From contig NC_012997.1 of the NCBI RefSeq assembly GCF_000023025.1, positions 4,709,125 through 4,773,124 of the forward strand: DNA of 64,000 bases, given 5' to 3'. Origin of the DNA: Teredinibacter turnerae T7901. Its GTDB lineage: Bacteria > Pseudomonadota > Gammaproteobacteria > Pseudomonadales > Cellvibrionaceae. The notes beneath the pieces are model-generated. The model searched no databases. It worked only from the letters and a program-made list of their open reading frames with translations, and was not told the DNA's origin. This document shows, piece by piece, positions 27,337 through 47,021 of this stretch (position 1 is its first letter; each line of letters opens with the position of its first letter). The position numbers and the translations under genes are program-made.

Positions 27337-28854
27337 TCAGTTCTCAGAGAGCGCTGCGTCTAACGAGGCTAGATAAGCGTCAATCCAGTCACTGGCGACA
27401 TCCTCGCTGAGCCTTGCCGGATCGTATTTCAGCAGACCAAGATAAGACTCTCCGTTATCGATAATCTCGAGAGTTAGATCAAACTGGCCTTCCTGCTGGA
27501 AGACGGGAAAGGGGTTAGTGGGCAAACCCAAAAATGGACGGCTCTGCGGCTCAGACCAGGGGTACAACCAGTCCACCAGATCCCCTAACACCTCTCGCTG
27601 TAAAAAATTGAACAGCACCTGAAACACCGGCGTAGTTCTTATATCCGGCGCCAGCCCAAGGCCCTTAACCAGCCAACCAAATGGATAGTCGCGATGCTCT
27701 AATGCGCCTGCCAGGTTAGCTGCGGTTTCCTGTAAGTGCTCATCAAACGGCTGAGCGAGCCGGTCTGGCCCAGCAAACACTGGCACAGGGTTCACAAAGT
27801 AGCCTGCGCACGAGAAGTACCCTGGCGCCCTTGCCCCCAGTGTTGGCACACCGACGATCACGCCTTCTGGGTTTACTGCCAGTAATTGACGCTGCATAAC
27901 CGCCAGCAAAACCACGGATGCCGTAGTGTGGTGTTGCTGAGCAAAAGCTTCTACGCGGTCCCGCCCTTGAGAAGAAAGCTCAAAAAACTGAGTTTCCCCT
28001 TGGGGAATGCGCTGACTGACCTGCTCCACCCGCGGTGATTCACAATCATTCAGCGAGGTGTGCGCAGGAATCTGCGCCAGTTGGTTTTGCCAGTAGGCCT
28101 GCGCCGAAGCCCAACGGGCCGACTCCTGAGTGCGCTGGTCTATCACGTAGTCGGTGTACAGAGGAAGAGCCATTTCTGCTGGTGTCGAATCTGTATACAG
28201 TTTGTTCAAAGCCGAAACAATCATCCCCATTGTCCAGCCATCAGCACTAAGGTGCGAAAACTTCAGTAATAACGCAGACTCAGATGTCGAAAAATTTATC
28301 AGTTGACATAAAAAGTTAGGCGATGATTCGAGGGTGAGAGGTGTGTCATAGAAATTTTGTGCAACTTCGAGCGCAGCATCAAAGTCTTCCACCGTTTCAA
28401 CATGCAACTCAAAACGGTCAACATCACCGATGCCTACGATCTGGCACGGAAGCGTTCTCCCTCCGATAGTTAACAGGCGATAACTGGACCCCAGACAGGG
28501 GTAGCGCACAAGCAGGCCCGCGAGAGCTGCGCGCAAGCGTTTCTCTTCAACCCGGCCATCCAGAGAAACACCGATCGCCAGATCGTACGCGGTGGACTCT
28601 GGTACAACTTGATAGTTGAAAAACAGTGATTGCTGGTTCGCAGACAAAGGGCTTATCAGACAAAAATCAGTCTCTCCTGCGAGACAGTCCGCGAGCATGG
28701 GCTTGGCTTGTTTAATCTGGCTGGCCAATTCCGGACTGAGCTGACCACCGGGTACCCGATATTTCAGTTTGTCGCCATGCAGCTTTAAAAAAACGCGTTC
28801 TTTAGCGAGAGCTTCGAGTAGCGCCTCTCCATCCATCCTAGAGTTCGCCCTCAT
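27337..28854 (-). CDS. TubC-docking condensation-domain protein
   Basis: This protein of about 505 residues begins with a TubC-type docking domain (about 7-55; LLEALAKERVFLKLHGDKLKYR). An NRPS condensation domain (about 65-490) follows and nothing else. The active-site motif HHxxxDG reads SHLSADG: the catalytic second His is kept and the first is Ser. It forms or transfers an amide or ester between carrier-bound partners. Its upstream neighbour, the methyltransferase-carrier protein, ends in an acidic tail that could be its docking ligand. The start at 28854 is preferred for GGGG six bases upstream and gives a 17-base overlap with the neighbour. A stand-alone C protein is unusual. Confidence 0.85.
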   Translation of the reverse strand: MRANSRMDGEALLEALAKERVFLKLHGDKLKYRVPGGQLSPELASQIKQAKPMLADCLAGETDFCLISPLSANQQSLFFNYQVVPESTAYDLAIGVSLDGRVEEKRLRAALAGLLVRYPCLGSSYRLLTIGGRTLPCQIVGIGDVDRFELHVETVEDFDAALEVAQNFYDTPLTLESSPNFLCQLINFSTSESALLLKFSHLSADGWTMGMIVSALNKLYTDSTPAEMALPLYTDYVIDQRTQESARWASAQAYWQNQLAQIPAHTSLNDCESPRVEQVSQRIPQGETQFFELSSQGRDRVEAFAQQHHTTASVVLLAVMQRQLLAVNPEGVIVGVPTLGARAPGYFSCAGYFVNPVPVFAGPDRLAQPFDEHLQETAANLAGALEHRDYPFGWLVKGLGLAPDIRTTPVFQVLFNFLQREVLGDLVDWLYPWSEPQSRPFLGLPTNPFPVFQQEGQFDLTLEIIDNGESYLGLLKYDPARLSEDVASDWIDAYLASLDAALSEN

Positions 28855-29992
28855 CAGCAACCCCGTTAGTACCTTGCACGGCAGGCCCCGTGACTCTACT
28901 TCCCGCGCTGACCAACTGCCAAAGGCGGTCTACGCCAAGATTATCGAGTAGCGTGAGGATGGGGATTTCGACTGAGGTCAGGTTTTTGATGGCATCCTGC
29001 AAAATAATCGCGCTCACGGAATCGATTCCAGCGTCACTCAGGGTGTCGTCTGCGTCGAGTAAATCATCGTCCAGAACTTGCCGAATCAAGGTGAGCAACG
29101 CGGCGCGATCCGGCAGGGGTAAATCCACTGCAGCCTTTACCTGACGGGCGCTGGGTGCTTCCACTTGGGCGCTTGCCGCAGCGCAATTACGGCCGACCGC
29201 CAACCACAACTGTCGGGAAATGACGTGCCCCGGCGTGTCCAGCATGGATTTCCAATCTCGCGCCAGCTCATCGAAGGCTGCCTGCGCAAGATAACCGCTT
29301 TTTACTAGCTGTGCAGGTATCCCCACGCCTTCCGCCCGCAGAAATGGCTCATCGCCAAGCTCCGCGTTATGGGCCATTTCCAGGCGATTAAAAACTAGGC
29401 TGTAGCCGGTGGCCTGGAGTAGCTGGGGGACGCGGCGTCCAATGGTAGGATCGCCACCATCATCTCTTCGTGCGGTGCAGTACGCCTGATAGAGCGGCTG
29501 CAGAGCGTTTACCTGAGGCCAGGTGCGCAGGTGGAAATCAAAGTCATTAGAGATAACCGCGAGCAAACCATCGGGCTTTAGCAACGCTTTTACCGCCGCT
29601 AGCGCAACCTCCGGCTTGGAGACATGCTCAAGCACCAAGCGCATGGTTATAAAGTCGAAGCTGCCCTCGGGCAGGGGTGGCGATTCTGCAGCGCCCTGGA
29701 AAATTTGACAACCCGCAAGCTGCTGACTGGCCAAATATTGTTCAGCTGCAGTCACGAGCAACGGATCACGCTCTAACCCTGAAATTCGACAGTTTGGGAA
29801 GCGCTCTTTAATCAGGCCGATAAGGTGGCCCGGGCCGCAGCCGATATCCAGAACCGACATACCATTGCGCAAGCCGGCCTGCGTCAGTAGATCCCCCTCG
29901 TGCGGCCAGAAAAGCGCGACTTGCGCGTTCAACCGCCGAATTTCATCGTCGAGATTATTGGCGAAATGACTTGCCTCGTATGCCGTATTCAT
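28838..29992 (-). CDS. SAM methyltransferase-carrier protein didomain
   Basis: This 384-residue protein has an N-terminal class I methyltransferase (about 1-260; SAM site VLDIGCGPGHLIGL) followed by a carrier domain (about 290-365) with the phosphopantetheine Ser in GIDSVSA. It ends in a flexible tail finishing ADEGEL. The methyltransferase would modify a substrate tethered to its own carrier. The acidic end resembles the short linear motifs bound by TubC/beta-hairpin docking domains, and the next gene begins with such a domain. The methylated position is unknown. GGAG is 12 bases before the ATG. The methyltransferase-ACP arrangement without other modules is uncommon. Confidence 0.85.
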   Translation of the reverse strand: MNTAYEASHFANNLDDEIRRLNAQVALFWPHEGDLLTQAGLRNGMSVLDIGCGPGHLIGLIKERFPNCRISGLERDPLLVTAAEQYLASQQLAGCQIFQGAAESPPLPEGSFDFITMRLVLEHVSKPEVALAAVKALLKPDGLLAVISNDFDFHLRTWPQVNALQPLYQAYCTARRDDGGDPTIGRRVPQLLQATGYSLVFNRLEMAHNAELGDEPFLRAEGVGIPAQLVKSGYLAQAAFDELARDWKSMLDTPGHVISRQLWLAVGRNCAAASAQVEAPSARQVKAAVDLPLPDRAALLTLIRQVLDDDLLDADDTLSDAGIDSVSAIILQDAIKNLTSVEIPILTLLDNLGVDRLWQLVSAGSRVTGPAVQGTNGVADEGEL

Positions 29993-30269
29993 GATGATTC
30001 CATGCTCCTTGCAAAGAAAGCTTCACGTATAAAAAGCCTTTAGTGCCCGCCGGTTAGACCGCTTAATCCAATGCTACTGTACGCTACTAACGGGTTAAAT
30101 AATCGCCAATGGCATGTTATTAGCATCTATTCGATATATAACCCTGAGCCATTAGGTGACGTCGATATTAGAGTCTGTTGTTAAACATGATTTGTGCCAG
30201 CAGACGCTTTTATCCACAGCCCTTAATGCAAATGTATTCATCAAGGACATAGTTATACTCCTGGAGTTA
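29993..30269. promoter_or_regulatory. Divergent promoter of the two NRPS transcripts
   Basis: This 277-bp region lies between the MT-carrier gene (minus) and the C-A-PCP gene (plus). It contains the AT-rich GATATATAAC around 30133-30142, which could be a -10 element for the plus strand. GGAG at 30263-30266 is the downstream ribosome-binding site. Confidence 0.35.
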
Positions 30270-33200
30270 ATGGTGGAAAATACCTCATACAGCCTACCCC
30301 CCGCATTGGTTGCCTCAGAGCCGGAAACCCAGTTCTGGCTGGCAGACCAGAAGGGACGCCGAAATGCCTACAACGTCATCTGCGCACTTCAGATACGCGG
30401 GCTGGATCAGGATCGCCTGGTCAATGCGGTATCAACCACACTCGCCAAGTTCCGAATTTTTAACGCTACCTACAGTTTTGCCAACGGCGATTTGCACCGT
30501 GATTACAGTGGTAACGCTCTAGACGTAAAAATTGCCGACGCTCCGCGCGCTCAAGGTTGGTTTGAAGACCAGTGCCAAGCGGACTTTTCACTTGAACATG
30601 GCCCGTTGTGTCGCCTGATTATTGAGCCAACGGCGCAACCCGATACCAAACGTGTCGCCATCGTCTTTCATCATATAGTGATGGATTTGGCCAGCAAGGA
30701 CATTATCAAAGAATACATAGAACATGCCTACAACGGCAATATTTGCGCGTTCAAGCAGGCGCAGGATAATTACGACCTGGTCACAGCTGACGCAGCCTCA
30801 TGGCTTGAGTCGCCAGTGGGAGAACGCGCTAAAGCCTATTGGCAGGAACGCACCACCGGCATTCAGAAACACACCCAGATTCACAGCAGCGCAGAATCCA
30901 GCGACCGCCTGATGAAAACCGCAAACTTGGCATTGCCTGCCGAGCTGCAAACGGCAGTCGTGGACTTCGCGAAAGCCCACAGCAGCTCACCCTTTTTAGT
31001 GATGCTGACAGCGTATTACTGGCTGCTGAGTAAATACGCGAACGAGACCAATTTTGCTGTGGGTGTGCCCTTGTCGTTGCGCCGCAACAGCAGTAACGAC
31101 ACCACCATCGGTTGCCTGATCAGCGTTGCCCCGATTATCGCCAAGCTCGAAGAAGGCACAAGCTTTCTCGCAGCCCTGAAAGAGATTCGCTTCGCCATGC
31201 TCGGCGCGCACCGGCACCCGTTCTATCCGTCGTTTGTTTCCGGTAGTGGGCAGGATAACGGTAAACTTTTCTGTAACGGATTCACCTTCGAACACCCGTT
31301 CACACTATCGCTCAACGATGCAGAAGTCGCGCCACTGCCTGTTCGCCCGAACGAACCGCAGCTCGCGCTCTTTATGCGTTGCTGGCAGGATGGCAACGCG
31401 CTGCACGGCGACCTGGAATACGATACCAGCGTATTTAATCACGAATTTGCAGAACGATTTAGCGCGTCTTATATCAGCGTTTTAGGGCAAATGGTGTCTA
31501 GCCCCGACGCCGCCCTTAGCGATATTAACTATCAGTCACCACAAGACTGCACCCTTATCGCCGGGGTAAACGCCACGGAGAAAGCATACGCCGCTCCGCA
31601 CCACCTGATGGACTTGTTTGAAGCGCAAGTGGCAAAAGCCCCACACAACACTGCGCTGCGCGATTCATCCGGCGACCTCAGCTACGCGGAATTGGATGCA
31701 GAAGCCAATCGCCGCGCACGGGTTCTAATTGAGACAGGGGTAAAACCAGGCGACGTGGTTGCACTGTTCTATAGCCGCAGCCGCGACATGCTCGCGGCCA
31801 TCTATGCGATTCAAAAGGCCGGAGCAGCCTATTTACCGATCGACATCCAACTGCCTGCCGATCGTGTGTCTTATATGCTTCGCCAGGCTAGCTGCAAACT
31901 GCTGCTCAATAGCACCGCATTGCCCGCAGGCCTCGATTTTTCTGGCCAGATACTCGCAGAGTCGGAATACCACTCACTCGCTCGCACACAGCCAGCGGAC
32001 AAAGTTTCTGTCACCCGCGACCCTGACGCCACCGCCTACATCATATTTACCTCCGGCTCCACTGGTCATCCGAAAGGTGTAGCCAACAGCCACCGCGGTA
32101 TCGCCAACCGTCTGCTTTGGATGCAAGAGGCATTTAATCTCGGCGCAGAACAAATTGCGTTGTTCAAAACACCCTATAATTTTGATGTGAGCGTATGGGA
32201 AGTTTTCTGGCCACTGCAAACCGGCGCGACTCTGGCGATCGCTGCAGCTGATAGCCATTTGGACCCTTATAGTATTGCCGCGCAGATCAAGCAATTTCAG
32301 GCGAATCTGGTGCATTTTGTACCAGCGATGCTTTCGGCATTACTCGCTGCAAAAGTTGATGGCCTGCCCTCAGTAAAAACCGTTATCTGCAGCGGCGAAG
32401 AATTAAAACAGGAACATCAACAGCAATTTTACGCACAATTTGACGGAGCCACTCTGTACAATCTTTACGGTCCTACCGAAGCGGCAATTGACGTAAGTTG
32501 CTGGACTTGCACCCCCACATTTGCGGGACATGTACTGCCAATCGGCAAGCCCATTGCCAATACGCAGCTGCATATTGTGGACGAAGAAATGCGACCTGTA
32601 CCCATCGGAGTGATGGGCGAGCTACTCATTGCGGGGGTTCAGGTTGCACAAGGTTACGTGGGTGCGGAAAACCTCACCGCAGAGCGATTTATTGCGAACC
32701 CGTTTGGCGAAGGTCGAGTTTATCGCACTGGCGATTTTGCCCGCTGGAACAGCGCTGGCGAAATCGAATTCCTCGGTCGTAAAGACTTCCAGGTTAAAAT
32801 CAACGGTTTGCGCATCGAGCTGGCCGAAATTGAAAACGTCATGATGAGCTTCAGTGGCATTGAATTAGCCGTTGTAACCACGCTCGACACGGGCAACTCA
32901 ACAGCACTGGTTGCTCACTTTACCTGTGCCACCGGAGCGACAGTGCAGGAAGCCGACTTAATCGCTTACCTGAGCGGCAAACTCCCTGCCTACGAAGTTC
33001 CGCGCTACTTTCAACAGCTGGCAGCATTCAGCCTGACCTCCAGCGGTAAAGTAGACCGCAAACACATTCCGGTATACAGCCTGCCTAAATTGACAGAAGA
33101 AGCTGCTCCTACCGGCGACCTCAGCGACCATGAGAAACTCATCCACGATGCCTGGTGTGAGGTATTGGGCAAGACGCAATGCGGGCTTGATGTGGGTTTT

Positions 33201-33449
33201 TTCGAAGCCGGCGGTGACTCTTTAGGCATGATGACTGTTCACTCGATACTGAATAGTCGCCATAACTTTGGCTTGTCCAGACCAGATATGTTTACTCATC
33301 CAAGCATACGTGCTCTAGCGGAGCACCTGGATAATCGCGCAAACATCGGCTCCACACCGAGCGCCACGCCTATCGCTAAAGCGTCTGCAAGTAGTCGGGC
33401 TCAAAAAATGCGCCAAGCGATGCGCAAACCCAAACGCGCCAATATTTAA
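30270..33449 (+). CDS. NRPS module C-A-PCP, predicted serine-activating
   Basis: The protein is about 1059 residues. The condensation domain comes first (active site HHIVMDL, the final Gly changed to Leu). The adenylation domain has FTSGSTGHPKG, NLYGPTEAAIDVS, YRTGDFAR and the A10 SGKVDRK, and a C-terminal carrier has FFEAGGDSLGMM. The specificity residues I read are D, V, W, H, I, S, L, I, D, K, which is the code I know for serine. There is no thioesterase. The frame is open from a GTG at 30156, but the ATG at 30270 (or GTG at 30273) has GGAG upstream and is preferred. It is transcribed away from the MT-carrier/C operon and ends 8 bp before the convergent operon. Confidence 0.85.
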   Translation: MVENTSYSLPPALVASEPETQFWLADQKGRRNAYNVICALQIRGLDQDRLVNAVSTTLAKFRIFNATYSFANGDLHRDYSGNALDVKIADAPRAQGWFEDQCQADFSLEHGPLCRLIIEPTAQPDTKRVAIVFHHIVMDLASKDIIKEYIEHAYNGNICAFKQAQDNYDLVTADAASWLESPVGERAKAYWQERTTGIQKHTQIHSSAESSDRLMKTANLALPAELQTAVVDFAKAHSSSPFLVMLTAYYWLLSKYANETNFAVGVPLSLRRNSSNDTTIGCLISVAPIIAKLEEGTSFLAALKEIRFAMLGAHRHPFYPSFVSGSGQDNGKLFCNGFTFEHPFTLSLNDAEVAPLPVRPNEPQLALFMRCWQDGNALHGDLEYDTSVFNHEFAERFSASYISVLGQMVSSPDAALSDINYQSPQDCTLIAGVNATEKAYAAPHHLMDLFEAQVAKAPHNTALRDSSGDLSYAELDAEANRRARVLIETGVKPGDVVALFYSRSRDMLAAIYAIQKAGAAYLPIDIQLPADRVSYMLRQASCKLLLNSTALPAGLDFSGQILAESEYHSLARTQPADKVSVTRDPDATAYIIFTSGSTGHPKGVANSHRGIANRLLWMQEAFNLGAEQIALFKTPYNFDVSVWEVFWPLQTGATLAIAAADSHLDPYSIAAQIKQFQANLVHFVPAMLSALLAAKVDGLPSVKTVICSGEELKQEHQQQFYAQFDGATLYNLYGPTEAAIDVSCWTCTPTFAGHVLPIGKPIANTQLHIVDEEMRPVPIGVMGELLIAGVQVAQGYVGAENLTAERFIANPFGEGRVYRTGDFARWNSAGEIEFLGRKDFQVKINGLRIELAEIENVMMSFSGIELAVVTTLDTGNSTALVAHFTCATGATVQEADLIAYLSGKLPAYEVPRYFQQLAAFSLTSSGKVDRKHIPVYSLPKLTEEAAPTGDLSDHEKLIHDAWCEVLGKTQCGLDVGFFEAGGDSLGMMTVHSILNSRHNFGLSRPDMFTHPSIRALAEHLDNRANIGSTPSATPIAKASASSRAQKMRQAMRKPKRANI

Positions 33450-33457
33450 CAACTCAT

Positions 33458-34348
33458 TTAAAACAGATACCGGGTTACAGCTGGTGGCAAAACTTTTTGC
33501 ACCAGCCACACCCCCGCTGCAGAAACCGCGAACCCCACTACCACGTTGGTATCCGCGCGCAAACCCAGCCAATATAAAATCACCAATACGGCCGGGTGGA
33601 CCAAGTAGATGCCCATAGTGGTTGGCGCTACTGTATCAACCAATCGGTTAGGCCGAATAAGGCTTTCTCTTGCGAAGAGCACACTGCACAACGCAATACC
33701 CAACGCGTAACCGATCGTCGTTCGGCCCTCACCATACAAGGTGGCTATAACCAAAGCCACAATGATCGAAACCAACGCCAACCCGCGATAAACAGTGCGT
33801 TGCGTTTGAAGTTGCGCGATACCCACACCAATCAACACTGGCGCGAGCGCGTGCAGCCATTGGATAAATGGCGTTGATATCCCGAGCCCCTTCCATAGCG
33901 GCACTGCGAGAATAAGTACGGTCGCGATTCCCACAGCCACACTTCCCAGTAACAATGCGGGCACCGCCCGGCGTAAGTAGTGCAACAAGGAAATACAGAT
34001 AAACGCAAATGGTAAAAACCACAGGTGAATTGACGGCGACGATAACGCAAAAGTTAACAGGTTGTCGTGCTCGCGAAAGATGGGTTTACCCAGAAACGAG
34101 CGCAGCACAAAATAAAAGACAAACCACACAGCATAGGGAATTAGCAAACGTTGCGCGGTTGCAAAAATAGGTTTAGGCCGGCCGACACAGGCGTAATACC
34201 CCATAAAGATCAAAAATACGGTGAGGCCCGCGTACGCCCAATGCGCTGGAATAAATCCTTCGCCGTGAAAATATACAATAAGAAACGCGGCAATTATCCG
34301 CAACAGCTCTACATCAGTTCGACGGTGTTTTTGCAGTGTTGCGTCCAT
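33458..34348 (-). CDS. Membrane acyltransferase-3 family protein (second copy)
   Basis: This 296-residue polytopic protein of the acyltransferase-3 (OafA/YrhL) family has about eight membrane segments and the conserved early His in LIVYFHGEG. Such enzymes move acyl groups, often acetyl or succinyl, onto sugars, lipids or antibiotics at the inner membrane. It is the last gene of the seven-gene operon and overlaps the previous acyltransferase by 35 bases. It ends 8 bp from the C-A-PCP gene coming the other way. It is shorter than usual for the family. Its substrate may be the product of this cluster. Confidence 0.78.
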   Translation of the reverse strand: MDATLQKHRRTDVELLRIIAAFLIVYFHGEGFIPAHWAYAGLTVFLIFMGYYACVGRPKPIFATAQRLLIPYAVWFVFYFVLRSFLGKPIFREHDNLLTFALSSPSIHLWFLPFAFICISLLHYLRRAVPALLLGSVAVGIATVLILAVPLWKGLGISTPFIQWLHALAPVLIGVGIAQLQTQRTVYRGLALVSIIVALVIATLYGEGRTTIGYALGIALCSVLFARESLIRPNRLVDTVAPTTMGIYLVHPAVLVILYWLGLRADTNVVVGFAVSAAGVWLVQKVLPPAVTRYLF

Positions 34349-35417: not shown

Positions 35418-35426
35418 TCAATAACC

Positions 35427-38400
35427 TCAATCAGCGGCTTTAATATAGTTGTGCACAAGATCGTAAACTTCATCTACTACATCCCCAGTGACCATATCCA
35501 CATGGTCCGCATGTACTTCGGCGACGTCCAGGTTGCCGGTAATCACCTTCGACATGCCGTAATCCGGCTTACTTGCCATCCCAAAGCCGGCATTGGTACG
35601 GCTGGCTTTTATCAGGAGCGCGTCAAAATCATAGGTTTTGCCCGTCGCGTTAAATGCGCGTGCAATCCGGTGAAACGCGTCGCCACGGTTGCGCTCTGCA
35701 CTCTCGTGATCCCAAACAATCCGCTTTGCACCGGATTTAAGCCCCAGCTTGCCCGCCACTTTTTGCGATACCCGCCCCGCAATAATCGATGAAAAACGCC
35801 GCAATCCGTATTGTTGATAGCGCGCAAAACTGTCGACCATGAGCTTGGGAAGTGTCCGGTAATGGCTGGATTGCAGGTACGAATCAAACAGTACCACCCG
35901 CTTCACCCGATACCCCAGCTCAGTGAGTTTTTGGTTCACCTCTAGCGCGAGTAAACCACCAAATGACAAGCCGACAAGCATCAGCTCCTTGCCGGACAGA
36001 TGGCGTATCACCGCCTGTACGTAGGTATCGACCAAAGAGTCAATGGACACCTCAGCACTGCCCTCGCCTTCGGCTTCGTCCTGAATAATGGCAATTTCTT
36101 CTTTGGCGTACATACCGTACACCGGGTTGTGCAAAAAATGGTTGGCAAATTCTTTATAAATTTGCACTCCACACAAGCAAAATACCGGCACGCCTTCTGC
36201 GACGCCATTGAGCAATACCACACTCGCAGCCTTTTCTGCATCATCCCCCATCTGGTCGACCAAATCACGAATGGTCGGGTGTTCAAACACACTGGAGTGA
36301 GTGAACTCAATACCCGTCGCTTTATGCATATCTTTCACCAACTTAATGGCCGAAAGCGAATCGCCGCCCAAATCAAAAAAATTGGTATCAATGGTCAACT
36401 GTGGTTGCTCTAAAACCTGCGCCCAGACCGCAAGCAAACTGCGGTCTAAATCCTGCCGCGCACCGCCTTCGTCGTCGTTACTGGGGTTTAACTGCGCACG
36501 CGCCACCGGTGTTTGTTGCGCTTGCGAACTCTGCGCAACACGCTTTGGTGAGAGCCAGTGTTCTTCTTTACGAAACGGATAGGTGGGTATCGCACGGCGG
36601 CGTCCGTCGACACCAAAACCCCAGGCGGCTATATCCAAGCGCGGAAATTGCAGCGCCATTCCCGCGACCGCCAAGTCGAAATTGACGTTTTCCGGGTTGC
36701 CGGTTTTTGCGTTACCTAAGGTGCGAAATACATTCACATTTGCGTCGAGCGTGTCTTTAACAAAACGGGTAAGCGCTCCGCCGGGACCAATTTCGATAAA
36801 GTTTTCGATTCCGGCTTTCGCCGCCTGCTCAATCGCAAACTTGAAATTGACTTCGTGACGCAAGTGCGCGGTCCAATACTCCACAGTTGCCGCCTGACTC
36901 GCCTTTGCCTCCTTGGAGGCGGGCTGAAACAAACCAGCAGCGGGTGCGAATTTCGCTTCGCCCATTGCCGTAGCAAAAGGCGCGAGCGCCGGTTCCATGT
37001 AGCGTGAATGAAACGGGTGGCGATTAGGCAATGTTGCGTGCTTAATTGACTCGCCGTCAAGGCGTTTAATAAACGCGTTAATATTTTCATGACTGCCGGA
37101 AACCACAATATTTTCACGGCTGTTTTCAATCGAAATTTCCAGCGTGTCGTCAAGTAACGCTTCTACCGCTGAGCGCGTTGCAAAAGCAACAACCATGGCG
37201 CCCTCTTCAGTCGCCGCCATTAGCCGTCCACGTTCCGCGACAATGCGCAACGCGGTGCGAATGTCAAAAATGCCATCGAGACAAGCAGCAGTGTATTCAC
37301 CGATGCTATGCCCCATCAACATCGCTGGCTGAATTCCCCAACGCATCAAGCAGCGGGCGAGTGCGTATTGCACGGCAACCAGCGCAGGTTGAACCAGGTC
37401 GGTGCGATTTTCGTCCGCCGTGGACAGTTTTTCCGGTGCCTGCAAATAACTGACGACCTCGCCCAAGCCGAGCTCCTGTAACACCGCAAGTACTGCATCC
37501 AACTCTTTGGCGTAACAGGGCTGCGCCGCATAAAGTTCAGAAGTCATCCCCAGAAAATGCGCGCCCTGACCGGTAAACATAAATGCCGCACGCTGGTTGC
37601 AATTGAGATTCAGCTGCTCACCATTTACCAGCATGGGCTCGCCGTCGGCTTTTGGGTAGGCCACTACCGCCTGGCCGTGCTGCAGACGCTTGCGGGACTC
37701 TCGCAACACATAGGACACATCGGCAAGCGAGGCTGGATACTGGCGGGTATAACGCGCAATTTCTTTACGCAGCGCCTTCAGTGAATCCCGGTGATGCGCG
37801 CTTATAGGCAACGCATATTTTTCACCGGTGGGCAATTCAATCGACGGCTGATACTCGGTCGCGTCACGCATAATTAAATGCACATTAGTGCCGCCTACCC
37901 CGAAACTACTCACCCCTGCATAAACTGCTTCAGTGCTACCACTTAAATCCACCGGTGCACGATTAAAATAAAATGGTGATTGCTCCTGGCCAATTTGTGG
38001 GGCCGCGCCATTGACGCAAACTGGTGGCACTGTTCGGTGCTGCAGTACCAGCGCCGTTTTAATTAAGGCCGCAACGCCGGCCGCCGCATCCAGATGGCCT
38101 ATGTTGGCCTTCAGTGTACCCAGCGCGCAAAATGGCTCTGCTACCCGTAAATCACCAAACGCACGCGCGAGACCGGCAAGTTCAATCGGGTCGCCCAAGG
38201 CCGTGGCGGTACCGTGGGTTTCCACAAACCGGATTTGCTCCGGCGCCACTTCAGCCAACCCATGCGCGAGCGAAATAACTTCCGTTTGGCCGTTGGCACT
38301 GGGTGCGGTAAACCCAACCTTATCGCGGCCATCATTATTGACGGCAGCGGCACTGATAATAGCCACCACATCGTCACCGTCGTTGAGTGCGTCTTCGAGG

Positions 38401-39161
38401 CGTTTCAGCACCACTACGCCAACACCTTCACCAAATAAGGTGCCGTTTGCACCGGGGGAAAAAGGTCGGCAGTAACCGTCTTTGGAAAAGATTAACCCAT
38501 CCGAATGCAGGTACCCGGCACCGTGCGGTACCGCAACGGTCGCACCGCCACACAGTGCCACATCGCACTGGTAACTCAGCAAACCGGCAATCCCCATTTG
38601 CGTCGCCAGCAGTGAGGTGGAACAGGCCGACTGCACGTTAATCGCGGGCCCGCGCAAATTTAGTTTGTACGCCACCCGGGTTGCCAGAAAATCTTTATCG
38701 CTGGCGATCATCTTCTGGAACTCATCGATATCGAAGTTGACCGTGTCGATATCCATATTTGTCAACAAGTACCGGTTGAGACCGCAGCCGGCATAAACAC
38801 CAACCGGCGAATCCATTTCGTCTGGAATATAGCCAGCCGATTCCAGTGCTTTCCAGGCATACTCCAAAAACAGGCGCTGTTGCGGATCGAGCAAGCGAGC
38901 CTCGGCGTGACTAAAACCGAAAAATTCCGCATCGAAACACTTGGCATCACTGATGGAGGCTGTGCGCTTAACATAGTTGGGCTGACCATAAACCGATTGC
39001 GGAATACCGATATCACGCAATTCTTTTTCCGAAACATCACTGATACCGCTTTTGCCCTGCATAAGGTTCTGCCAGAACTCCTCGACGGAATCGGAACCTG
39101 GGAAGCGGCCAGCCATGCCAACAATGGCGATATCAGTATCGGAAACGTTTACTTCATTCAT
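35427..39161 (-). CDS. Type I polyketide synthase KS-AT-ACP-TE
   Basis: This 1244-residue enzyme has a ketosynthase (about 1-430; VQSACSTSL with the active Cys, HGTAT and NIGH). The acyltransferase (about 525-810) has GHSIGEY and HPFHS, which suits malonyl-CoA. A carrier (about 925-995; LGGDSLSAI) and a type I thioesterase (about 1005-1244; GLSFGG) follow. There are no reducing domains, so one elongation would leave a beta-keto group that the TE releases. The first bases overlap the preceding hydrolase gene. The partner substrate, probably from the NRPS or the free carrier at 40084, is not known. Confidence 0.92.
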   Translation of the reverse strand: MNEVNVSDTDIAIVGMAGRFPGSDSVEEFWQNLMQGKSGISDVSEKELRDIGIPQSVYGQPNYVKRTASISDAKCFDAEFFGFSHAEARLLDPQQRLFLEYAWKALESAGYIPDEMDSPVGVYAGCGLNRYLLTNMDIDTVNFDIDEFQKMIASDKDFLATRVAYKLNLRGPAINVQSACSTSLLATQMGIAGLLSYQCDVALCGGATVAVPHGAGYLHSDGLIFSKDGYCRPFSPGANGTLFGEGVGVVVLKRLEDALNDGDDVVAIISAAAVNNDGRDKVGFTAPSANGQTEVISLAHGLAEVAPEQIRFVETHGTATALGDPIELAGLARAFGDLRVAEPFCALGTLKANIGHLDAAAGVAALIKTALVLQHRTVPPVCVNGAAPQIGQEQSPFYFNRAPVDLSGSTEAVYAGVSSFGVGGTNVHLIMRDATEYQPSIELPTGEKYALPISAHHRDSLKALRKEIARYTRQYPASLADVSYVLRESRKRLQHGQAVVAYPKADGEPMLVNGEQLNLNCNQRAAFMFTGQGAHFLGMTSELYAAQPCYAKELDAVLAVLQELGLGEVVSYLQAPEKLSTADENRTDLVQPALVAVQYALARCLMRWGIQPAMLMGHSIGEYTAACLDGIFDIRTALRIVAERGRLMAATEEGAMVVAFATRSAVEALLDDTLEISIENSRENIVVSGSHENINAFIKRLDGESIKHATLPNRHPFHSRYMEPALAPFATAMGEAKFAPAAGLFQPASKEAKASQAATVEYWTAHLRHEVNFKFAIEQAAKAGIENFIEIGPGGALTRFVKDTLDANVNVFRTLGNAKTGNPENVNFDLAVAGMALQFPRLDIAAWGFGVDGRRRAIPTYPFRKEEHWLSPKRVAQSSQAQQTPVARAQLNPSNDDEGGARQDLDRSLLAVWAQVLEQPQLTIDTNFFDLGGDSLSAIKLVKDMHKATGIEFTHSSVFEHPTIRDLVDQMGDDAEKAASVVLLNGVAEGVPVFCLCGVQIYKEFANHFLHNPVYGMYAKEEIAIIQDEAEGEGSAEVSIDSLVDTYVQAVIRHLSGKELMLVGLSFGGLLALEVNQKLTELGYRVKRVVLFDSYLQSSHYRTLPKLMVDSFARYQQYGLRRFSSIIAGRVSQKVAGKLGLKSGAKRIVWDHESAERNRGDAFHRIARAFNATGKTYDFDALLIKASRTNAGFGMASKPDYGMSKVITGNLDVAEVHADHVDMVTGDVVDEVYDLVHNYIKAAD

Positions 39162-40053
39162 ATTTTTTACCAGAGGCTATATTTTCGCGTTCACTGCGCG
39201 GCGCCGTGGTTAATTCCTGCTGCAACAACCAGAGATAGGTTTCTGGCGTGAAGCTCTCGTACTCAATGCCGTGCCCTGCATCGAGTTCTGTTAATCGTGC
39301 TGCGATACCCCGCGCTTCCAGCGCAGCCTGCATCGCACGCGAATTTTCGATAGGTGCGACCTTGTCACGAATACCGTGAAACATCCACAGCGGTGTCTGC
39401 CCAATAATTTCCGCTTGGCTCGGGTCGGTGCGGCCATTCATCGGTATTGCGGCCGCAAAAACGTGAGGAAAGTGATAGAGAAATTGCCAGGTAGCACTCG
39501 CCCCCATGGACGAACCGGTGATATAGATCCGTCGCGGGTCTATGGGGTAATTCGCAATAATATCGTCGATTAACGCCAGTACAGCTTTAAACCGCTCACT
39601 TACGCTGGTGCCTGCCATCGTGTAGTTACCGTAGGGCGCCCCAGACGATTTAACATCGGTCCACTCCACACCTTTCGGGCACTGCGGCACAATAACAGCA
39701 GCGGCCGACAAGGATTGGAGTTTGGCACTGGTAAGCTGCTCAACTGCTGGCGAGAGCTGAGAAAAGTTGTTGCTCCCGCGCCCAGTCGAGGCATGCAGCA
39801 CAAGTATTAAAGGCAGCTTTTGATCAGCGTCGGCGCGTTCCGGCATAAATAACCGGTATGGTAGCGTCAACTTGCCGCGATCACCGCGGTAGATAAATGC
39901 CTCCGCTTGCATAAGATCCATTAGCGCGAGTTGACGCTCGTTAGGCACAGGTGCTGGCCTGTACCACCGGTAAACAGCCAACATCAGGCCCAACACCAGC
40001 GTCAATCCTACTAGTGCGGCGAGCACTGCAAAATGTCCGGAAAGCAATTTCAT
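39154..40053 (-). CDS. Membrane-anchored alpha/beta hydrolase
   Basis: This 299-residue protein has an N-terminal membrane anchor (about 8-30) followed by an alpha/beta hydrolase of the PHB-depolymerase/LpqC kind. It shows VLHASTGRGSNN (oxyanion region), the nucleophile elbow GSSMGAS, Asp in HGIRDKVAP and His in LDAGHGIEYE. The domain should face the periplasm. It could cleave an ester from the final product, act as a resistance enzyme or release a prodrug part. It lies between the free carrier and the PKS in one operon and its end overlaps the PKS start. Confidence 0.82.
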   Translation of the reverse strand: MKLLSGHFAVLAALVGLTLVLGLMLAVYRWYRPAPVPNERQLALMDLMQAEAFIYRGDRGKLTLPYRLFMPERADADQKLPLILVLHASTGRGSNNFSQLSPAVEQLTSAKLQSLSAAAVIVPQCPKGVEWTDVKSSGAPYGNYTMAGTSVSERFKAVLALIDDIIANYPIDPRRIYITGSSMGASATWQFLYHFPHVFAAAIPMNGRTDPSQAEIIGQTPLWMFHGIRDKVAPIENSRAMQAALEARGIAARLTELDAGHGIEYESFTPETYLWLLQQELTTAPRSERENIASGKKYE

Positions 40054-40083
40054 CCTGAACCATCAATTCCCTGCGGCTGCGCT

Positions 40084-40347
40084 CTAACTAGCGCAGGAAG
40101 TCCCCACTTTGCGCGCCGCAAAATCGATCATTTTATTAACCGAACCAAAGTTATCGCGGATGAGCTCGTCCTCCGCAATCTCTATGCCGTGTGTTGCTTG
40201 CAAGTAGGAGGCGATTTCAATGAGGCCAAAGGAATCGATAATTCCCTCATCGATAAGGGATTGGTCTAACGGAATTTCGTCCTCATCGACCATGTAATTT
40301 TCAGAAATAAACGCAACAAGCGCCTGTCTAGCGTCGTCTTTAATCAT
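40084..40347 (-). CDS. Free-standing acyl carrier protein
   Basis: This 87-residue carrier has the phosphopantetheine site GIIDSFGLIE and the usual acidic helix pattern. The start at 40347 (MIKDDARQ) is chosen over an upstream ATG because only this part matches the fold and it fits the 16-bp gap after the asparagine synthetase gene. It probably carries the starter or the amide-bearing unit made by the asparagine synthetase next to it. Confidence 0.85.
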   Translation of the reverse strand: MIKDDARQALVAFISENYMVDEDEIPLDQSLIDEGIIDSFGLIEIASYLQATHGIEIAEDELIRDNFGSVNKMIDFAARKVGTSCAS

Positions 40348-40363
40348 GCTAAGTCCGCAATTA

Positions 40364-42352
40364 TTAGAGTGTATCGACAATATCAACTGTACAGAGACCA
40401 TAATCCGGTGCATCGTGTACCGGTTTATTCAACCAATAGTGGCAAAGTTGGGTACTGTAGATAAATGTAAAAATCATATTATCGCGATAGCCTATATCCT
40501 TAGGTACACCGCGTTTGAATTTTTTAAGAAATTTCACGACCATTTCGTGATTGAACAGACCTGCATCCTTGATCGCCTGGTCGTTCATCATTTCAGCAGC
40601 CATACCCTGTAAGTTACCGGAATCATCGATAAATGAAATCAGGTCGGGCGCCATGTACGGGCGCTTGGGTCGGTCGATAATCTGCTGAGGAATCTTACCG
40701 GTGAATGCCTCCCGCAATACCGCTTTTTGTTCGAACCCGCGCAACTTGTATTCGTCAGGCATAGCAAACGCCTGCTCTACAACTTGGTGGTCGAGAAACG
40801 GGAAGCGACCTTCCACACCGTGGCTCAGCGCCATCCGATCCCCTTGTGACGAGAGTAAATACCCCTGCAACAGGGTTTTCATCTCGAGAAAACTATTGCG
40901 CTGCATTAACGTCCAGTGCTTAAAATCAGCGGGAAGTTGTGCTGCGATCCGCTCCCGCATAAGGCTTTTATCGACCTGCAATCCAAAATCAGGATTGAGA
41001 TAGCGCTCGAGGATTTTATTGTTATTAAACCGAATATTCAGCCCCGCCATTTCATTATCGTAATCGTCGAGAAAACCCTCGTAATACAGACGAATAAGTC
41101 CAAAATGCTTTGGATCTGAGTAGTGAGCCAAATGCGGGTACAAATCCCGCAGAGCGTTTTCCACTTCGGGTGAGTAACCGCTCTTTTTCCAGGAGTCGAG
41201 AATTTTTAATTCTTTAAAGGCATCGTAACCACAGAGAATTTCGTCAGCGCCCTCACCCGTGAGCACCACTTTAATTCGCTCCTGCTGTACTTTCTCGGAG
41301 AGCAAATACAAGGGGGTTGGCGCAGTGCGAAAAATAGGACGCTCCGTATGGCGTACTGTGTCGGCAATCGAGTCCGCTATGTTTTGGCGAGAAACACGCA
41401 CTTCGTTGTGCTGCGAATTAACGTCTTCGCTCGCCATTTTCTGGTATAGCGATTCGTCCAGCGACTCGTCCTCGAATGCGACCGAGAAGGTGCGGAAATC
41501 GTGATTGGTGGCGTCTTTCACCAGACGGGAAATTACCGTTGAGTCGATACCACCACTCAAATAAGCACCGACCGGAACATCACTACGCAGCCGCAGAGTG
41601 ACTGCATCCGACAAGGCTTGCGTTAAGCCTTCCTGCGCCTGTTCGAACGAAGAGAACTGGTCTCGGCGCGCCGACAGTTCTTCACCAAGTTGATAGTAGC
41701 GCCGCGTTTGCTCCTCACCAGAAGTGGCAAAAATCTTGACGGTTCCAGACTCCACACTGCGGACATCGTTGTAAACCGTAGTCTCACCGAGTGTATTCCA
41801 AAGCAGGCCGTGCTCTAACAATCCGGCCGGAGAAAAGGAACGTCGAAAGCCTGGAAGACAGTCGAAAGCTTTCATCTCTGAAGAAAACACCCAACCGCCC
41901 CGGTACGGCAGAATATAAAGCGGCCGAATGCCATAGCGATCGCGTGCGACGATCAGTCGCTGCTCGCGCTTATCCCAAATGATGATGGCAAACTGGCCGT
42001 TGAACTGCCGGAAACACTCGATTCCGTCACGTTGATAGAGTTTGAGGATCACTTCTGTGTCAGAGCGGGTCTCAAACACAACGCCTTGCGACTCCAGCTC
42101 GGCGCGCAACTCTACATGGTTAAAAATTTCGCCGTTGAACGACAGAATTTGATCGCCGCTTACCATAGGTTGATGGCCGGCAGCGACATCAACGATCGAC
42201 AGGCGCACATGCCCGAGCGTCGCTTTTGGGCTGTTGTATAGCCCCCAGGCATCCGGCCCGCGGTGTTGCATCTGTACCAGGGCTTGCGTTGTCAGCTGTC
42301 GCTTCTCTTCAATTCCGAGACCGGTTGCAAAAATTGCAAAAACACCGCACAT
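40364..42352 (-). CDS. asnB: Asparagine synthetase-like amidotransferase (glutamine-hydrolysing)
   Basis: This 662-residue enzyme has a glutaminase half starting MCGVFAIF with the catalytic Cys at position 2, and a synthetase half with the pyrophosphate loop SGGIDST. Known AsnB converts aspartate to asparagine with glutamine as nitrogen source; relatives in secondary metabolism amidate carboxyls of carrier-bound substrates. Placement next to a carrier gene and a PKS points to the latter. It lies 142 bp after a second family member that has lost the glutaminase Cys. Confidence 0.9.
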   Translation of the reverse strand: MCGVFAIFATGLGIEEKRQLTTQALVQMQHRGPDAWGLYNSPKATLGHVRLSIVDVAAGHQPMVSGDQILSFNGEIFNHVELRAELESQGVVFETRSDTEVILKLYQRDGIECFRQFNGQFAIIIWDKREQRLIVARDRYGIRPLYILPYRGGWVFSSEMKAFDCLPGFRRSFSPAGLLEHGLLWNTLGETTVYNDVRSVESGTVKIFATSGEEQTRRYYQLGEELSARRDQFSSFEQAQEGLTQALSDAVTLRLRSDVPVGAYLSGGIDSTVISRLVKDATNHDFRTFSVAFEDESLDESLYQKMASEDVNSQHNEVRVSRQNIADSIADTVRHTERPIFRTAPTPLYLLSEKVQQERIKVVLTGEGADEILCGYDAFKELKILDSWKKSGYSPEVENALRDLYPHLAHYSDPKHFGLIRLYYEGFLDDYDNEMAGLNIRFNNNKILERYLNPDFGLQVDKSLMRERIAAQLPADFKHWTLMQRNSFLEMKTLLQGYLLSSQGDRMALSHGVEGRFPFLDHQVVEQAFAMPDEYKLRGFEQKAVLREAFTGKIPQQIIDRPKRPYMAPDLISFIDDSGNLQGMAAEMMNDQAIKDAGLFNHEMVVKFLKKFKRGVPKDIGYRDNMIFTFIYSTQLCHYWLNKPVHDAPDYGLCTVDIVDTL

Positions 42353-42494
42353 ATTTCTTCCTAAAATGAGACTTGAGGCATGGTTTAAAAAATATAATTG
42401 CTAGACAAAAGATAATACAGATGTCACACAGGGCCTCTTACTGTCATCAAGCATAAATTATGCCGCATATTCAATTCGGAGAGGCTTACCCTCC

Positions 42495-43799
42495 TTATGC
42501 CAGCAATGTTTCTGTCGAGTAACGCCCCATCATAATAGGAATTCGAGTTTCAGCACCGGCCAGACCTGAGGTTAAACACGCTTTGAACACGGCTTCAGTG
42601 ATCCCGTGCTTGTGACACAACCCGAGCACGCCCATGGACTTTTTATCCCCCACTTGCGCACGCAGCTTGGATTTGGGGATATGCTGCAGAATATCCCCGG
42701 GCACCAGATGGCTGTTGAGCAGCGGCTTTACCTCTGGCTGACTCAGCAGCGACTCTGGCACAGCTTCGTAAAGGTCGTAAACCGCAGCATAAGGCTGCAC
42801 GCAATCCAGGCCGTACTGCGCGAACAAACCCCATTCCCTATCTGAAGTATCCAGCCCGCCAATTAAATGTTTTTGCAACGCTTTCTTGCCAATGCGAGGA
42901 AGCCGGTAATACCTTGTTTGCTCCACGATTTCCTCTTCGTAGTCGCACACAAATTCGTTCATCAAATCACCGGTAATGATCATGCGCTTTGCTGAAACAC
43001 CATTTGCTCCAGCCCACTGATTAATTTTTTCAGCCAATAGGCAATTGAGCGCTGCGCAGTGAACATTAAAATCCCGAAAATCCTGGCAAAGCAACGGCGC
43101 TTTTTCTACTGCGGCTAGAATCTCGTCCTCACTCACCCCGAACACACAATGACGAATAGCCAGCTGTGCAGCGATTTTTTGCGCTTTTTCCGCATCTTCG
43201 CTGCCACCCAAATCCAAAGTCACCGCAATGGGGTTAGCGCAAAACCGCTTGGCATAATGGGCCATTGTCGAGCTGTCCAGGCCACCGGAGAGGGCGACGA
43301 ATACCGTATAGCCTGCATTTTCTGCGGCTTTAATGCAGTCAAATACCGCCGCGAGACGAAACTCTACCAACTGCGCAAAACCAGCGTAATTTTGTTCCAG
43401 CAGCAGCGTCTGTGCTTGCAACTGGAGTGAAGACGCAAAAGGTGCGGGCGAGACATTCGCCAATTCGCGTAAGCCGTCCGCTGAAATTTCTACAACTTTC
43501 CCCCGGGGCAACGCATAGATGGGTTGCTCGTATGGCAGTAACTCTATAAAGGAATCAGCAAACACCAACTCTCCCTTAACCGGGCGGGTATAGAATTTTT
43601 TGACCACACCCAGATGGTCGCGCGCGGCCACATAGCGGCTGCCATCGAGTACACAGCCACCAAACTGACCGTAAATAGCCTCGCCAGCCGTAAGGCCTAG
43701 TATTTCTGCTGACGGCGGCTGCGAAATCAACTGCAGCCAATAGTGCGACCGCGGGGGTTCCGCAGTCAGTGCATTTTTAAAAAAGGAAACCATATCCAA
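42495..43799 (-). CDS. Asparagine-synthetase homologue without glutaminase (lactam-synthetase-like)
   Basis: This 434-residue protein has a shortened N-terminal part (about 1-125) that starts MDMVSFF, so the glutaminase nucleophile is missing. A synthetase domain with LSGGLDSS (about 165-430) follows. In beta-lactam synthetase and carbapenam synthetase the same changes convert an amide-forming enzyme into one that adenylates a carboxylate and closes a lactam ring. Key catalytic residues of those enzymes cannot be placed with confidence here; ITGDLMNEF and a late KKSMG are present. It is the first gene of the biosynthetic operon. It could also be an amide ligase using free ammonia or an amine. 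Confidence 0.75.
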   Translation of the reverse strand: MDMVSFFKNALTAEPPRSHYWLQLISQPPSAEILGLTAGEAIYGQFGGCVLDGSRYVAARDHLGVVKKFYTRPVKGELVFADSFIELLPYEQPIYALPRGKVVEISADGLRELANVSPAPFASSLQLQAQTLLLEQNYAGFAQLVEFRLAAVFDCIKAAENAGYTVFVALSGGLDSSTMAHYAKRFCANPIAVTLDLGGSEDAEKAQKIAAQLAIRHCVFGVSEDEILAAVEKAPLLCQDFRDFNVHCAALNCLLAEKINQWAGANGVSAKRMIITGDLMNEFVCDYEEEIVEQTRYYRLPRIGKKALQKHLIGGLDTSDREWGLFAQYGLDCVQPYAAVYDLYEAVPESLLSQPEVKPLLNSHLVPGDILQHIPKSKLRAQVGDKKSMGVLGLCHKHGITEAVFKACLTSGLAGAETRIPIMMGRYSTETLLA

Positions 43800-43984: not shown

Positions 43985-44008
43985 AAAAGGGGCCTTTCGG
44001 CCCCTTTT
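43985..44008 (-). terminator. Terminator of the first lipoprotein gene
   Basis: AAAAGGGGCC, TTTC and GGCCCCTTTT form a symmetrical 10-bp stem 25 bp past the stop of the minus-strand lipoprotein gene at 44033, with T-runs on both sides. It also separates that gene from the biosynthetic operon upstream region. Confidence 0.9.
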
Positions 44009-46129: not shown

Positions 46130-46545
46130 GCCCCTATTACCTCTGTAAGTAGTGTTTTTTAAAGTGAGTTGCAAAGTTAAATGTGTTGTCTGAATGAATC
46201 AGGTTGAACATATTTAATACTATAGAATTAACTATGTATGCAGAACGCCACGACAAACTTACTACTTGAGAATGGTGTCACGAGATTTATTATAATACTA
46301 TTGAATGATCACATTTTAACCGGAAGGGGTTCAACAAATTGGGCGCAGGAAACATCGCAGCCCAGGAACGCGTGGAGACATGGCATGCCACGTTCGAAAA
46401 ACAGTCCAGCGCGGAGCGAGTCTAACGGCGTAAAAACCGTTGTCAGGTAGCGAATCAAACAGGAATTAGCCGAAATTTAAGTCACGAAATTTCGGCAACA
46501 TACGGTTCAAGAGGGGAAAAGCAACGGAAATAAAATTATTGCGAA
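46130..46545. other. Gap between the lipoprotein A and GMC small-subunit genes
   Basis: This 416-bp AT-rich gap on both sides of 46200-46320 should hold the promoter of lipoprotein A. TAATACTAT-type boxes occur at 46215 and 46290 but none has a clear partner. No small gene with a ribosome-binding site was seen. Confidence 0.35.
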
Positions 46546-46995: not shown

Positions 46996-47021
46996 AATCA
47001 ACTCCTGTCATTATCGCGCGG

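What the first reader, a model, noticed from the sequence alone, without database searches (positions are those of the whole stretch)
27337..43799. Unusual hybrid NRPS-PKS cluster with two asparagine-synthetase-family enzymes
Sequence shows a stand-alone C protein, an MT-carrier didomain, a C-A-PCP module with a serine code, a KS-AT-ACP-TE PKS, a free carrier, two AsnB relatives, a membrane hydrolase and two acyltransferases in three transcripts. The seven-gene operon is tightly spaced. I do not know a natural product family with this set, so the pathway is a candidate for a new small molecule.
Basis: partly seen in the sequence, partly recalled or inferred. Interest (0 to 1): 0.72.

Follow-up and report, generated by a model that had tools for sequence, protein, structure and literature searches.

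The report
Shipworm-symbiont NRPS-PKS cluster with paired amidotransferases
A bacterium that lives in shipworm gills carries a compact, conserved gene set that seems to build a small serine-containing molecule from an amide-bearing starter made by two nitrogen-adding enzymes on a free carrier protein; the cluster itself is already catalogued without a known product, and its relatives and likely logic are what is new here.

Summary
In detail: all ten genes are present in three strand blocks, and all are under purifying selection against a sister species. The genome matches Teredinibacter turnerae T7901, and the cluster is almost certainly the already reported "region 8"/GCF_4, with no product given in the papers searched. 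What is new is the anatomy. Besides one sister species with the same ten genes, a core of AsnB (AsnB1) + free ACP + C-A(Ser)-PCP + membrane-anchored hydrolase + KS-AT-ACP recurs in three more genomes and, cut short, in a fourth. In these four, the second AsnB relative (AsnB2) is replaced by an N-acetyl-sugar-amidotransferase-like PP-loop enzyme, a family assigned to turning an amide into an amidine. More distant AsnB1 relatives mostly sit near an ACP (22 of 25), often with a NadE-like PP-loop enzyme (10 of 14 read widely). Best explanation: AsnB1 and a second ammonia-using PP-loop enzyme amidate an ACP-bound acyl group (most likely malonyl), which is joined to serine and extended once with malonate. 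The stand-alone C and MT-carrier were not found in the four related clusters. Rivals: amidation after release, surface-glycan decoration, a beta-lactam-type step. Substrate and amide/amidine chemistry are inferred, not shown.

The parts
42495..43799 (-). AsnB2: AsnB-family PP-loop ATPase (SGGLDSS) with a shortened N-terminal domain lacking the glutaminase Cys; proposed second, ammonia-using amidotransferase
   Evidence: Pfam Asn_synthase 1.1e-11; NCBIfam asn_synth_AEB 42 bits, cut-off 267; alignment; 34% identical to a Kitasatospora plasmid protein encoded next to an ACP
40364..42352 (-). AsnB1: glutamine-dependent AsnB-type amidotransferase, Cys after the start and SGGIDST PP-loop intact
   Evidence: GATase_7 + Asn_synthase; TIGR01536 441 bits, cut-off 267; both motifs in 6 of 6 clade members
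40084..40347 (-). free acyl carrier protein, 87 aa, DSFGL phosphopantetheine site; proposed carrier of the amidated starter
   Evidence: PP-binding 1.3e-7; 67% identical to the G135 ACP; start by comparison with G136
39154..40053 (-). alpha/beta hydrolase with an N-terminal membrane anchor, GSSMG nucleophile motif
   Evidence: Peptidase_S9/esterase matches; hydropathy; related protein in G135, G814, G732
35427..39161 (-). PKS: KS-AT-ACP-TE, one extension with a malonyl-type AT (GHSIG, HPFH; meaning of motifs recalled)
   Evidence: Pfam; active-site columns
34314..35417 (-). membrane acyltransferase (Acyl_transf_3), tailoring or resistance
   Evidence: Pfam 1.5e-27
33458..34348 (-). second membrane acyltransferase (Acyl_transf_3)
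   Evidence: Pfam 2.4e-13
30156..33449 (+). NRPS: C-A-PCP with serine-type A code and HHIVMDL C motif
   Evidence: Pfam; code and C motif shared by 5 of 5 NRPSs read
28838..29992 (-). SAM methyltransferase-carrier didomain; present in G136, not found in the G135, G814, G732 and G674 stretches
   Evidence: Pfam Methyltransf_11 and PP-binding
27337..28860 (-). stand-alone condensation domain with N-terminal TubC_N docking domain (SHLSADG, second His kept); overlaps the MT-carrier gene by 23 bp; present in G136, not found in the other four stretches
   Evidence: Pfam; sequence

Best explanation
The locus is a hybrid NRPS-PKS pathway whose starter is an amidated acyl group made on a free carrier. 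Shown by sequence: AsnB1 (glutaminase + PP-loop synthetase) and the free ACP are one conserved unit, a second PP-loop ATPase without an AsnB-type glutaminase accompanies them, and a C-A(Ser)-PCP and a KS-AT-ACP belong to the same conserved set. Inferred: the ACP is loaded with malonyl, AsnB1 amidates its free carboxylate, and the second PP-loop enzyme (AsnB2 here, a NASAT-like enzyme in the sister clusters) adds a second nitrogen, for instance turning the amide into an amidine. The NRPS C domain then couples this starter to serine, the PKS adds one malonate, and the TE releases a short beta-keto or cyclised product. The core before tailoring would be about C8H12N2O6 (amide) or C8H13N3O5 (amidine). 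The MT-carrier and stand-alone C add or modify one more unit. The membrane hydrolase and acyltransferases act at the membrane, in tailoring, export or self-protection.
For: (1) The AsnB1-ACP pair is kept in 6 of 6 clade members, and the clade has 100/100 support. Of 25 more distant relatives, 15 have an ACP within 1.5-kb flanks and 7 more in wider stretches, 22 in all; none of 5 other AsnB paralogues of the genus has one in the flanks held, which are only about 0.8-1.5 kb. (2) Precedent: glutarimide clusters pair an AsnB homologue with a discrete ACP, proposed there to give malonamyl-ACP (passages of PMC7756379; PMC8262917; PMC4853412). (3) The second PP-loop slot is filled by AsnB2 in the window and G136 and by a NASAT-like enzyme in G135, G814, G732 and G674, never both in the stretches searched; a NadE-like enzyme lies with the AsnB in 10 of 14 distant relatives read widely. 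AsnB2 lacks the AsnB glutaminase region; NASAT is described as ligating ammonia (PMC10607449, passage); ammonia use by the NadE type is family knowledge. (4) A NASAT-like stretch lies inside an annotated NRPS gene of Roseovarius pelagicus, after A-domain and before PCP matches. (5) The Ser-type A code is shared by 5 of 5 NRPSs and the AT motifs by 5 of 5 PKSs.
Against: No chemistry was tested. The ACP cargo is a guess: no dedicated malonyl loader is present beyond the PKS AT, and 11 of 14 distant relatives read widely carry an AMP-ligase, so their ACP may be loaded with some other acid. Three distant AsnB1 relatives have no recognisable ACP even in 11-12 kb. The NASAT-like proteins of the sister clusters score below the family cut-off (141-151 against 203 bits), so amidine chemistry may not carry over. 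AsnB2 is not an orthologue of the NASAT-like enzyme, so 'same job' is inferred from position and partners only. The roles of the MT-carrier and stand-alone C are not explained, and there is only one A domain in the cluster. The PKS release domain is not constant across the family (Ser TE, Cys TE, or no TE).
Confidence: 0.45

Rival explanations
1. AsnB1 (and AsnB2) act after chain release: the NRPS-PKS makes a carboxylic acid and the AsnB enzymes turn carboxylates into carboxamides, as SidA does in siderochelin biosynthesis. The free ACP then serves another step.
For: SidA, predicted as an asparagine synthetase, is needed for the late carboxylate-to-amide step in siderochelin (PMC11481915, passages). 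AsnB1 passes the general AsnB model.
Against: The AsnB1-ACP adjacency is conserved across the clade and found in most distant relatives. A late amidation would not need a partner carrier.
Confidence: 0.25
2. The product is not a secreted metabolite but an acyl decoration of a surface glycan or glycolipid, transferred by the membrane acyltransferases (or by a hexapeptide transferase in G732).
For: The G732 PKS has a Hexapep match in place of a TE (2.4e-6), and Wzz, pyruvyl transferase, flippase and hexapeptide transferase genes lie upstream of its AsnB1. In the window the cluster lies between a DprE1/DprE2/UbiA-like set (DprE1 and DprE2 matches under their cut-offs) and GT-C, Wzy-like, flippase and GT2 genes. 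In G137 the GT-C, flippase-like, UbiA, DprE1, DprE2 and Wzy-like genes form one contiguous block next to a PKS end. No transporter is among the ten genes.
Against: In G814 and G135 the same core has other neighbours (gcv, argG, dihydrodipicolinate synthase and glycerate kinase genes; GH43 and YebC genes) among the proteins scanned. G137 has no AsnB1 orthologue, so its link may be incidental. The TE with a Ser or Cys nucleophile in the other clusters argues for release.
Confidence: 0.15
3. AsnB2 is a beta-lactam-synthetase-like cyclase that closes a ring on the chain, so the product carries a strained lactam.
For: With a three-sequence profile the best solved relative of AsnB2 is beta-lactam synthetase 1jgt (1.9e-12), ahead of AsnB 1ct9 (3.3e-10); with the single sequence 1jgt is the only match (2.2e-4). 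Beta-lactam synthetase is also an AsnB fold without a working glutaminase (recalled).
Against: The profile match covers only residues 37-234. The slot is filled by NASAT-like enzymes in sister clusters, a family not known to me to make lactams. No obvious source of a beta-amino acid is in the cluster.
Confidence: 0.07

Closest known systems
T. turnerae T7901 'region 8' / GCF_4
   Same: Most likely the very same cluster: the locus lies between region 7 (turnerbactin, found here at about 4.483-4.507 Mb) and a PKS at 4,867 kb that fits region 9.
   Different: Described only as a PKS-NRPS cluster in the passages read; no product, gene functions or relatives. Its coordinates are in a figure I could not see.
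Glutarimide loading module (AsnB homologue + ACP + AT; Smd/Chx/Ltm/Mgs/Gds, SbnJ-SbnK)
   Same: AsnB-family amidotransferase next to a discrete ACP, proposed malonamyl starter.
   Different: Here a cis-AT single-module PKS plus a serine NRPS module, a second PP-loop enzyme, and no seven-domain glutarimide-forming module.
N-acetyl sugar amidotransferases (WbuX, WbpG, LpNASAT 8WEX)
   Same: Sister clusters carry such a homologue (N-terminal cysteines, SGGKDST PP-loop) where the window has AsnB2.
   Different: Encoded with ACP/NRPS/PKS genes, below the TIGR03573 cut-off; none in the window or the G136 stretch.
AsnB-ACP-AMP ligase-NadE cassettes (rhizobia and other Pseudomonadota)
   Same: Same trio logic: AsnB, carrier, second PP-loop ATPase.
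   Different: Carrier with an AMP-ligase beside it; AsnB only 36-41% identical; no such NRPS-PKS set was recognised in the stretches read.
Beta-lactam synthetase / CarA
   Same: Among the closest solved relatives of AsnB2, with AsnB itself.
   Different: No defining catalytic residue could be tested; genomic partners differ.

Membership tests
T. turnerae region 8 / GCF_4 | genome is T. turnerae T7901 or a near-identical strain | tested here: met
   13 of 14 turnerbactin-locus protein lengths of PMC3795760 recur in order, TnbF 2399 aa included; the 100-aa TERTU_4057 was not found in place. G000 is 5,193,164 bp against 5,192,641 bp in the paper.
T. turnerae region 8 / GCF_4 | mixed NRPS-PKS cluster lying between regions 7 and 9 | tested here: met
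   Of 23 PKS matches in G000 (E up to 1e-50) only this locus and one at 4,867 kb lie beyond region 7; region 8 is mixed, region 9 a small PKS, regions ordered by distance from the origin. NRPS genes were not searched genome-wide.
T. turnerae region 8 / GCF_4 | published coordinates agree | not testable with these tools
   Coordinates are given only in a figure.
Glutarimide malonamyl loading module | AsnB homologue adjacent to a discrete ACP | tested here: met
   6 of 6 clade members
Glutarimide malonamyl loading module | seven-domain first PKS module of an AT-less PKS | tested here: not met
   PKS is KS-AT-ACP-TE
Glutarimide malonamyl loading module | malonyl-ACP is the amidated substrate | not testable with these tools
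   needs an enzyme assay
Glutamine-dependent asparagine synthetase superfamily (AsnB1) | N-terminal Cys, PP-loop, score over the AsnB model cut-off | tested here: met
   441 bits against 267; motifs
Glutamine-dependent asparagine synthetase superfamily (AsnB2) | N-terminal glutaminase Cys and cut-off score | tested here: not met
   42 bits against 267; N-terminal part missing
Beta-lactam synthetase | lactam-forming catalytic residues | tested here: inconclusive
   PDB match stops at AsnB2 residue 234; structure prediction failed, pLDDT 33.8
N-acetyl sugar amidotransferase (sister clusters only) | TIGR03573 cut-off | tested here: not met
   141 (G135), 151 (G814) and 150 (G732) bits against 203
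Siderochelin-type late amidation | amidation of the finished carboxylate | not testable with these tools
   needs a deletion mutant or assay

The most novel reading that the evidence does not exclude
A modular 'two PP-loop' starter machine: a glutamine-dependent AsnB makes a carrier-bound amide, and a second, glutaminase-less PP-loop ATPase turns it into a carrier-bound amidine. Evolution has filled the second slot with three different PP-loop families (AsnB2, NASAT-like, NadE-like). The NRPS-PKS products would be amidine-bearing serine compounds, and NASAT-like domains would be a not yet described class of tailoring domain that also occurs inside NRPS genes.
Probability: 0.25. Interest if true: 0.78.

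Novelty: new variant of a known kind. Interest (0 to 1): 0.58.

Why it matters
GCF_4 is reported in all T. turnerae-containing shipworms, yet no product is given in the passages read. A defined core, a predicted order of steps and a list of sister clusters turn an orphan cluster into something testable with three purified proteins. If the second PP-loop enzyme makes an amidine on a carrier, that would be an enzyme function for which three full-text searches of the open-licence library showed me no report (listings only), with relatives in rhizobia, marine bacteria and Streptomyces.

Tried and rejected
Product prediction by likeness to a known cluster: no record found in the plasmid searches holds the whole set, only partial likeness (20 to 45 rows listed of up to 1474 records). 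Known T. turnerae compounds as the product: turnerbactin is region 7/GCF_8 and tartrolon GCF_11; teredinibactins are phenolate-thiazolines, which does not fit a Ser code; turnercyclamycins are lipopeptides, and that they belong to another region is recalled, not seen in a call; butuanimides belong to GCF_122, found in one other strain. Horizontal transfer from composition: the GC of the cluster (0.49-0.55) lies within the window's range, so it says nothing. Promoter scan: 8 sites against 13.8 in shuffles; terminator scan: 33 against 22.9 (sd 5.3), only the hairpin at 43985-44008 used. Structure of AsnB2: AlphaFold2 on the single sequence gave pLDDT 33.8, discarded. AsnB2 distribution: besides its own genome only G136 in 144 family genomes (E up to 1e-15), none in 369 class genomes (1e-12), none in 299 phylum genomes with a profile (1e-30), one plasmid record, none in viral contigs by pattern scan. 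The single genome-contig scan, with the PKS, gave five loci; in the four compared, only general PKS likeness was seen. G137 was first taken for another sister cluster because of a PKS end at a contig edge, but it has no AsnB1 orthologue.

Counting notes: AsnB1 orthologues come from the genus (8 genomes), order (390) and phylum (398) searches, which overlap; G135 came from the genus search. G674 is cut by a contig edge, so its NRPS, operon hydrolase and PKS are not seen and it is not in the counts of 5. NadE and ligase were sought widely in 14 of 25 distant loci; the other 11 have 1.5-kb flanks only. The final Lys of the A-domain code was assumed, not read. Motif meanings (A code, AT, C and TE motifs) are recalled. 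The domain order of the Roseovarius and Streptomyces proteins rests on tblastn matches and record annotation, not on a family scan; the condensation part of the Streptomyces protein rests on its annotation alone.


Full report
WHERE IT IS. The window is G000:C1:4709125-4773124 of a 5,193,164-bp single-contig genome. Thirteen of 14 protein lengths published for the turnerbactin locus of Teredinibacter turnerae T7901 (PMC3795760, passages) recur in order at 4,483,386-4,507,022, including the 2399-aa TnbF; one 100-aa protein was not found in place. The published genome length is 5,192,641 bp (PMC2699552, passage). I take the genome to be T7901 or a near-identical strain. [quoted passage not shown] Of 23 PKS matches in G000, only the present locus and one at 4,867 kb lie beyond region 7. 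So this is almost certainly region 8, later GCF_4, which was found in all T. turnerae-containing shipworms (PMC7329324, passage). A search for papers holding GCF_4, teredinibactin or turnercyclamycin with T. turnerae listed six papers, none with a product for GCF_4 in its title or the start of its abstract.

THE PARTS. Additions: the stand-alone C protein carries an N-terminal TubC_N docking domain and an SHxxxDG motif with the second His kept; the MT-carrier gene overlaps it by 23 bp, so the two may be one split unit (inference). AsnB1 keeps the Cys after the start and the PP-loop SGGIDST. AsnB2 lacks the glutaminase N-terminus but keeps the PP-loop SGGLDSS. Against the sister species G136 all 10 genes have dN/dS between 0.028 and 0.121, so none looks decayed.

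RELATIVES. AsnB1 gave a clear gap in score. In 390 order genomes 15 match; the own genome, G136, G814, G674 and G732 score 822-1525 bits and the other ten at most 454. In 398 phylum genomes 16 match, and the best besides its own is 471 bits. In the genus (8 genomes) G136 and G135 (807 bits) stand out and the other five score at most 284. The six AsnB1 proteins form one clade (100/100). Their surroundings: G136 has the same ten genes as the window. G814 has AsnB1-ACP-NASAT-like-(C-A-PCP)-hydrolase-(KS-AT-ACP-TE). G135 has the same plus a patatin. G732 has the same with an Acyl_transf_3 before the NRPS and a Hexapep match in place of the TE. G674 has AsnB1-ACP-NASAT-like, then the contig ends. 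The window and G136 have AsnB2 and no NASAT-like gene in the stretches searched; G135, G814, G732 and G674 have the NASAT-like gene and no AsnB2, MT-carrier or stand-alone C. Shared by the five NRPSs that can be read: A code D-V-W-H-(I/V)-S-L-(I/V)-D (serine type, recalled) and C motif HHxxxDL; by the five PKSs: KS Cys, GHS(I/L)G and an (A/P)FH AT motif. The TE nucleophile is Ser in the window, G136 and G814 and Cys in G135; G732 has no TE match.

A WIDER PATTERN. Among 25 more distant AsnB1 relatives (36-41% identity) an ACP lies nearby in 22: 15 within 1.5-kb flanks and 7 more in wider stretches; three have none found (L043, L048, L055). As a control, 0 of 5 other AsnB paralogues in the genus have one in the 0.8-1.5 kb of flank held. 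In the 14 distant loci read more widely, 10 also hold a NadE-like PP-loop protein and 11 an AMP-ligase. Sinorhizobium meliloti and Rhizobium sp. ACO-34A plasmids carry asnB-ACP-ligase-NadE in a row. AsnB2 has one plasmid relative, in Kitasatospora sp. NBC_00374, 34% identical and directly followed by an ACP gene. A NASAT-like stretch lies inside an annotated Roseovarius pelagicus NRPS gene, after an A match and before PCP, C (weak, 7e-6) and A matches, and at the start of an annotated condensation-domain protein two genes after asnB in Streptomyces sp. NBC_01216. So three different PP-loop families without an AsnB-type glutaminase occur beside AsnB and/or carrier proteins.

MECHANISM. An AsnB homologue with a discrete ACP is the proposed malonamyl starter unit of glutarimide polyketides (passages of PMC7756379, PMC8262917 and PMC4853412). 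[quoted passage not shown] abstract start in a listing; passages and legends). Put together: AsnB1 makes an ACP-bound amide, the second PP-loop enzyme adds a second nitrogen, the NRPS couples the starter to serine, the PKS adds malonate, and the chain is released. The sequence supports the partners and the modules. The cargo (malonyl), the amidine, the order of steps and the release product are inference.

RIVALS. Late amidation as by SidA in siderochelin (PMC11481915, passages) is possible, but does not explain the conserved ACP. A surface-glycan decoration is suggested by the G732 PKS end, by polysaccharide genes beside G732, and by the pentose-donor-like and GT-C/Wzy-like genes around the window cluster, but the G814 and G135 neighbours scanned are not of that kind. 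A lactam-forming AsnB2 rests on partial matches to beta-lactam synthetase.

VERDICT.

Noticed in passing
window 21645-26126 and 46546-51744: DprE2-like SDR, DprE1-like oxidase, UbiA/HAD phosphoribosyltransferase and a flippase-like protein on one side, GMC oxidoreductase, GT-C and Wzy-like proteins on the other. In G137 the GT-C, flippase-like, UbiA, DprE1, DprE2 and Wzy-like genes are one contiguous block beside a PKS ACP-TE end, as if the NRPS-PKS cluster had split a pentose-donor glycosylation locus in T. turnerae.
   Followed up: partly
L029:11424-19472 and L028:13938-16118: NASAT (WbuX)-like stretches inside an annotated NRPS, between A and PCP matches (Roseovarius pelagicus plasmid), and at the start of an annotated condensation-domain protein near asnB (Streptomyces sp. 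NBC_01216 plasmid).
   Followed up: partly
L026:9001-13806, L027:8043-12819, L066-L070, L083-L087: Recurrent cassette of AsnB, ACP, AMP-ligase and NadE-like PP-loop protein of unknown product; the two rhizobial plasmid copies lie close to minCDE.
   Followed up: partly
L065:1996-5697: PKS ending in a hexapeptide-transferase-like stretch instead of a thioesterase, with surface-polysaccharide genes upstream of its operon (L064).
   Followed up: partly
L024:17256-21511: Kitasatospora plasmid genes for an AMP-ligase, aminotransferase, AsnB2-like protein and ACP in a row, after a polysaccharide deacetylase gene: another pathway of unknown product.
   Followed up: no
window 44033-46174 and 54378-56693: Two large proteins with a Bact_surface_Ig-like domain lie to the right of the cluster.
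   Followed up: no
window 43985-44008: GC-rich hairpin (10 pairs) with A and T runs between the Ig-like gene and AsnB2; it could end transcription ahead of the operon.
   Followed up: no
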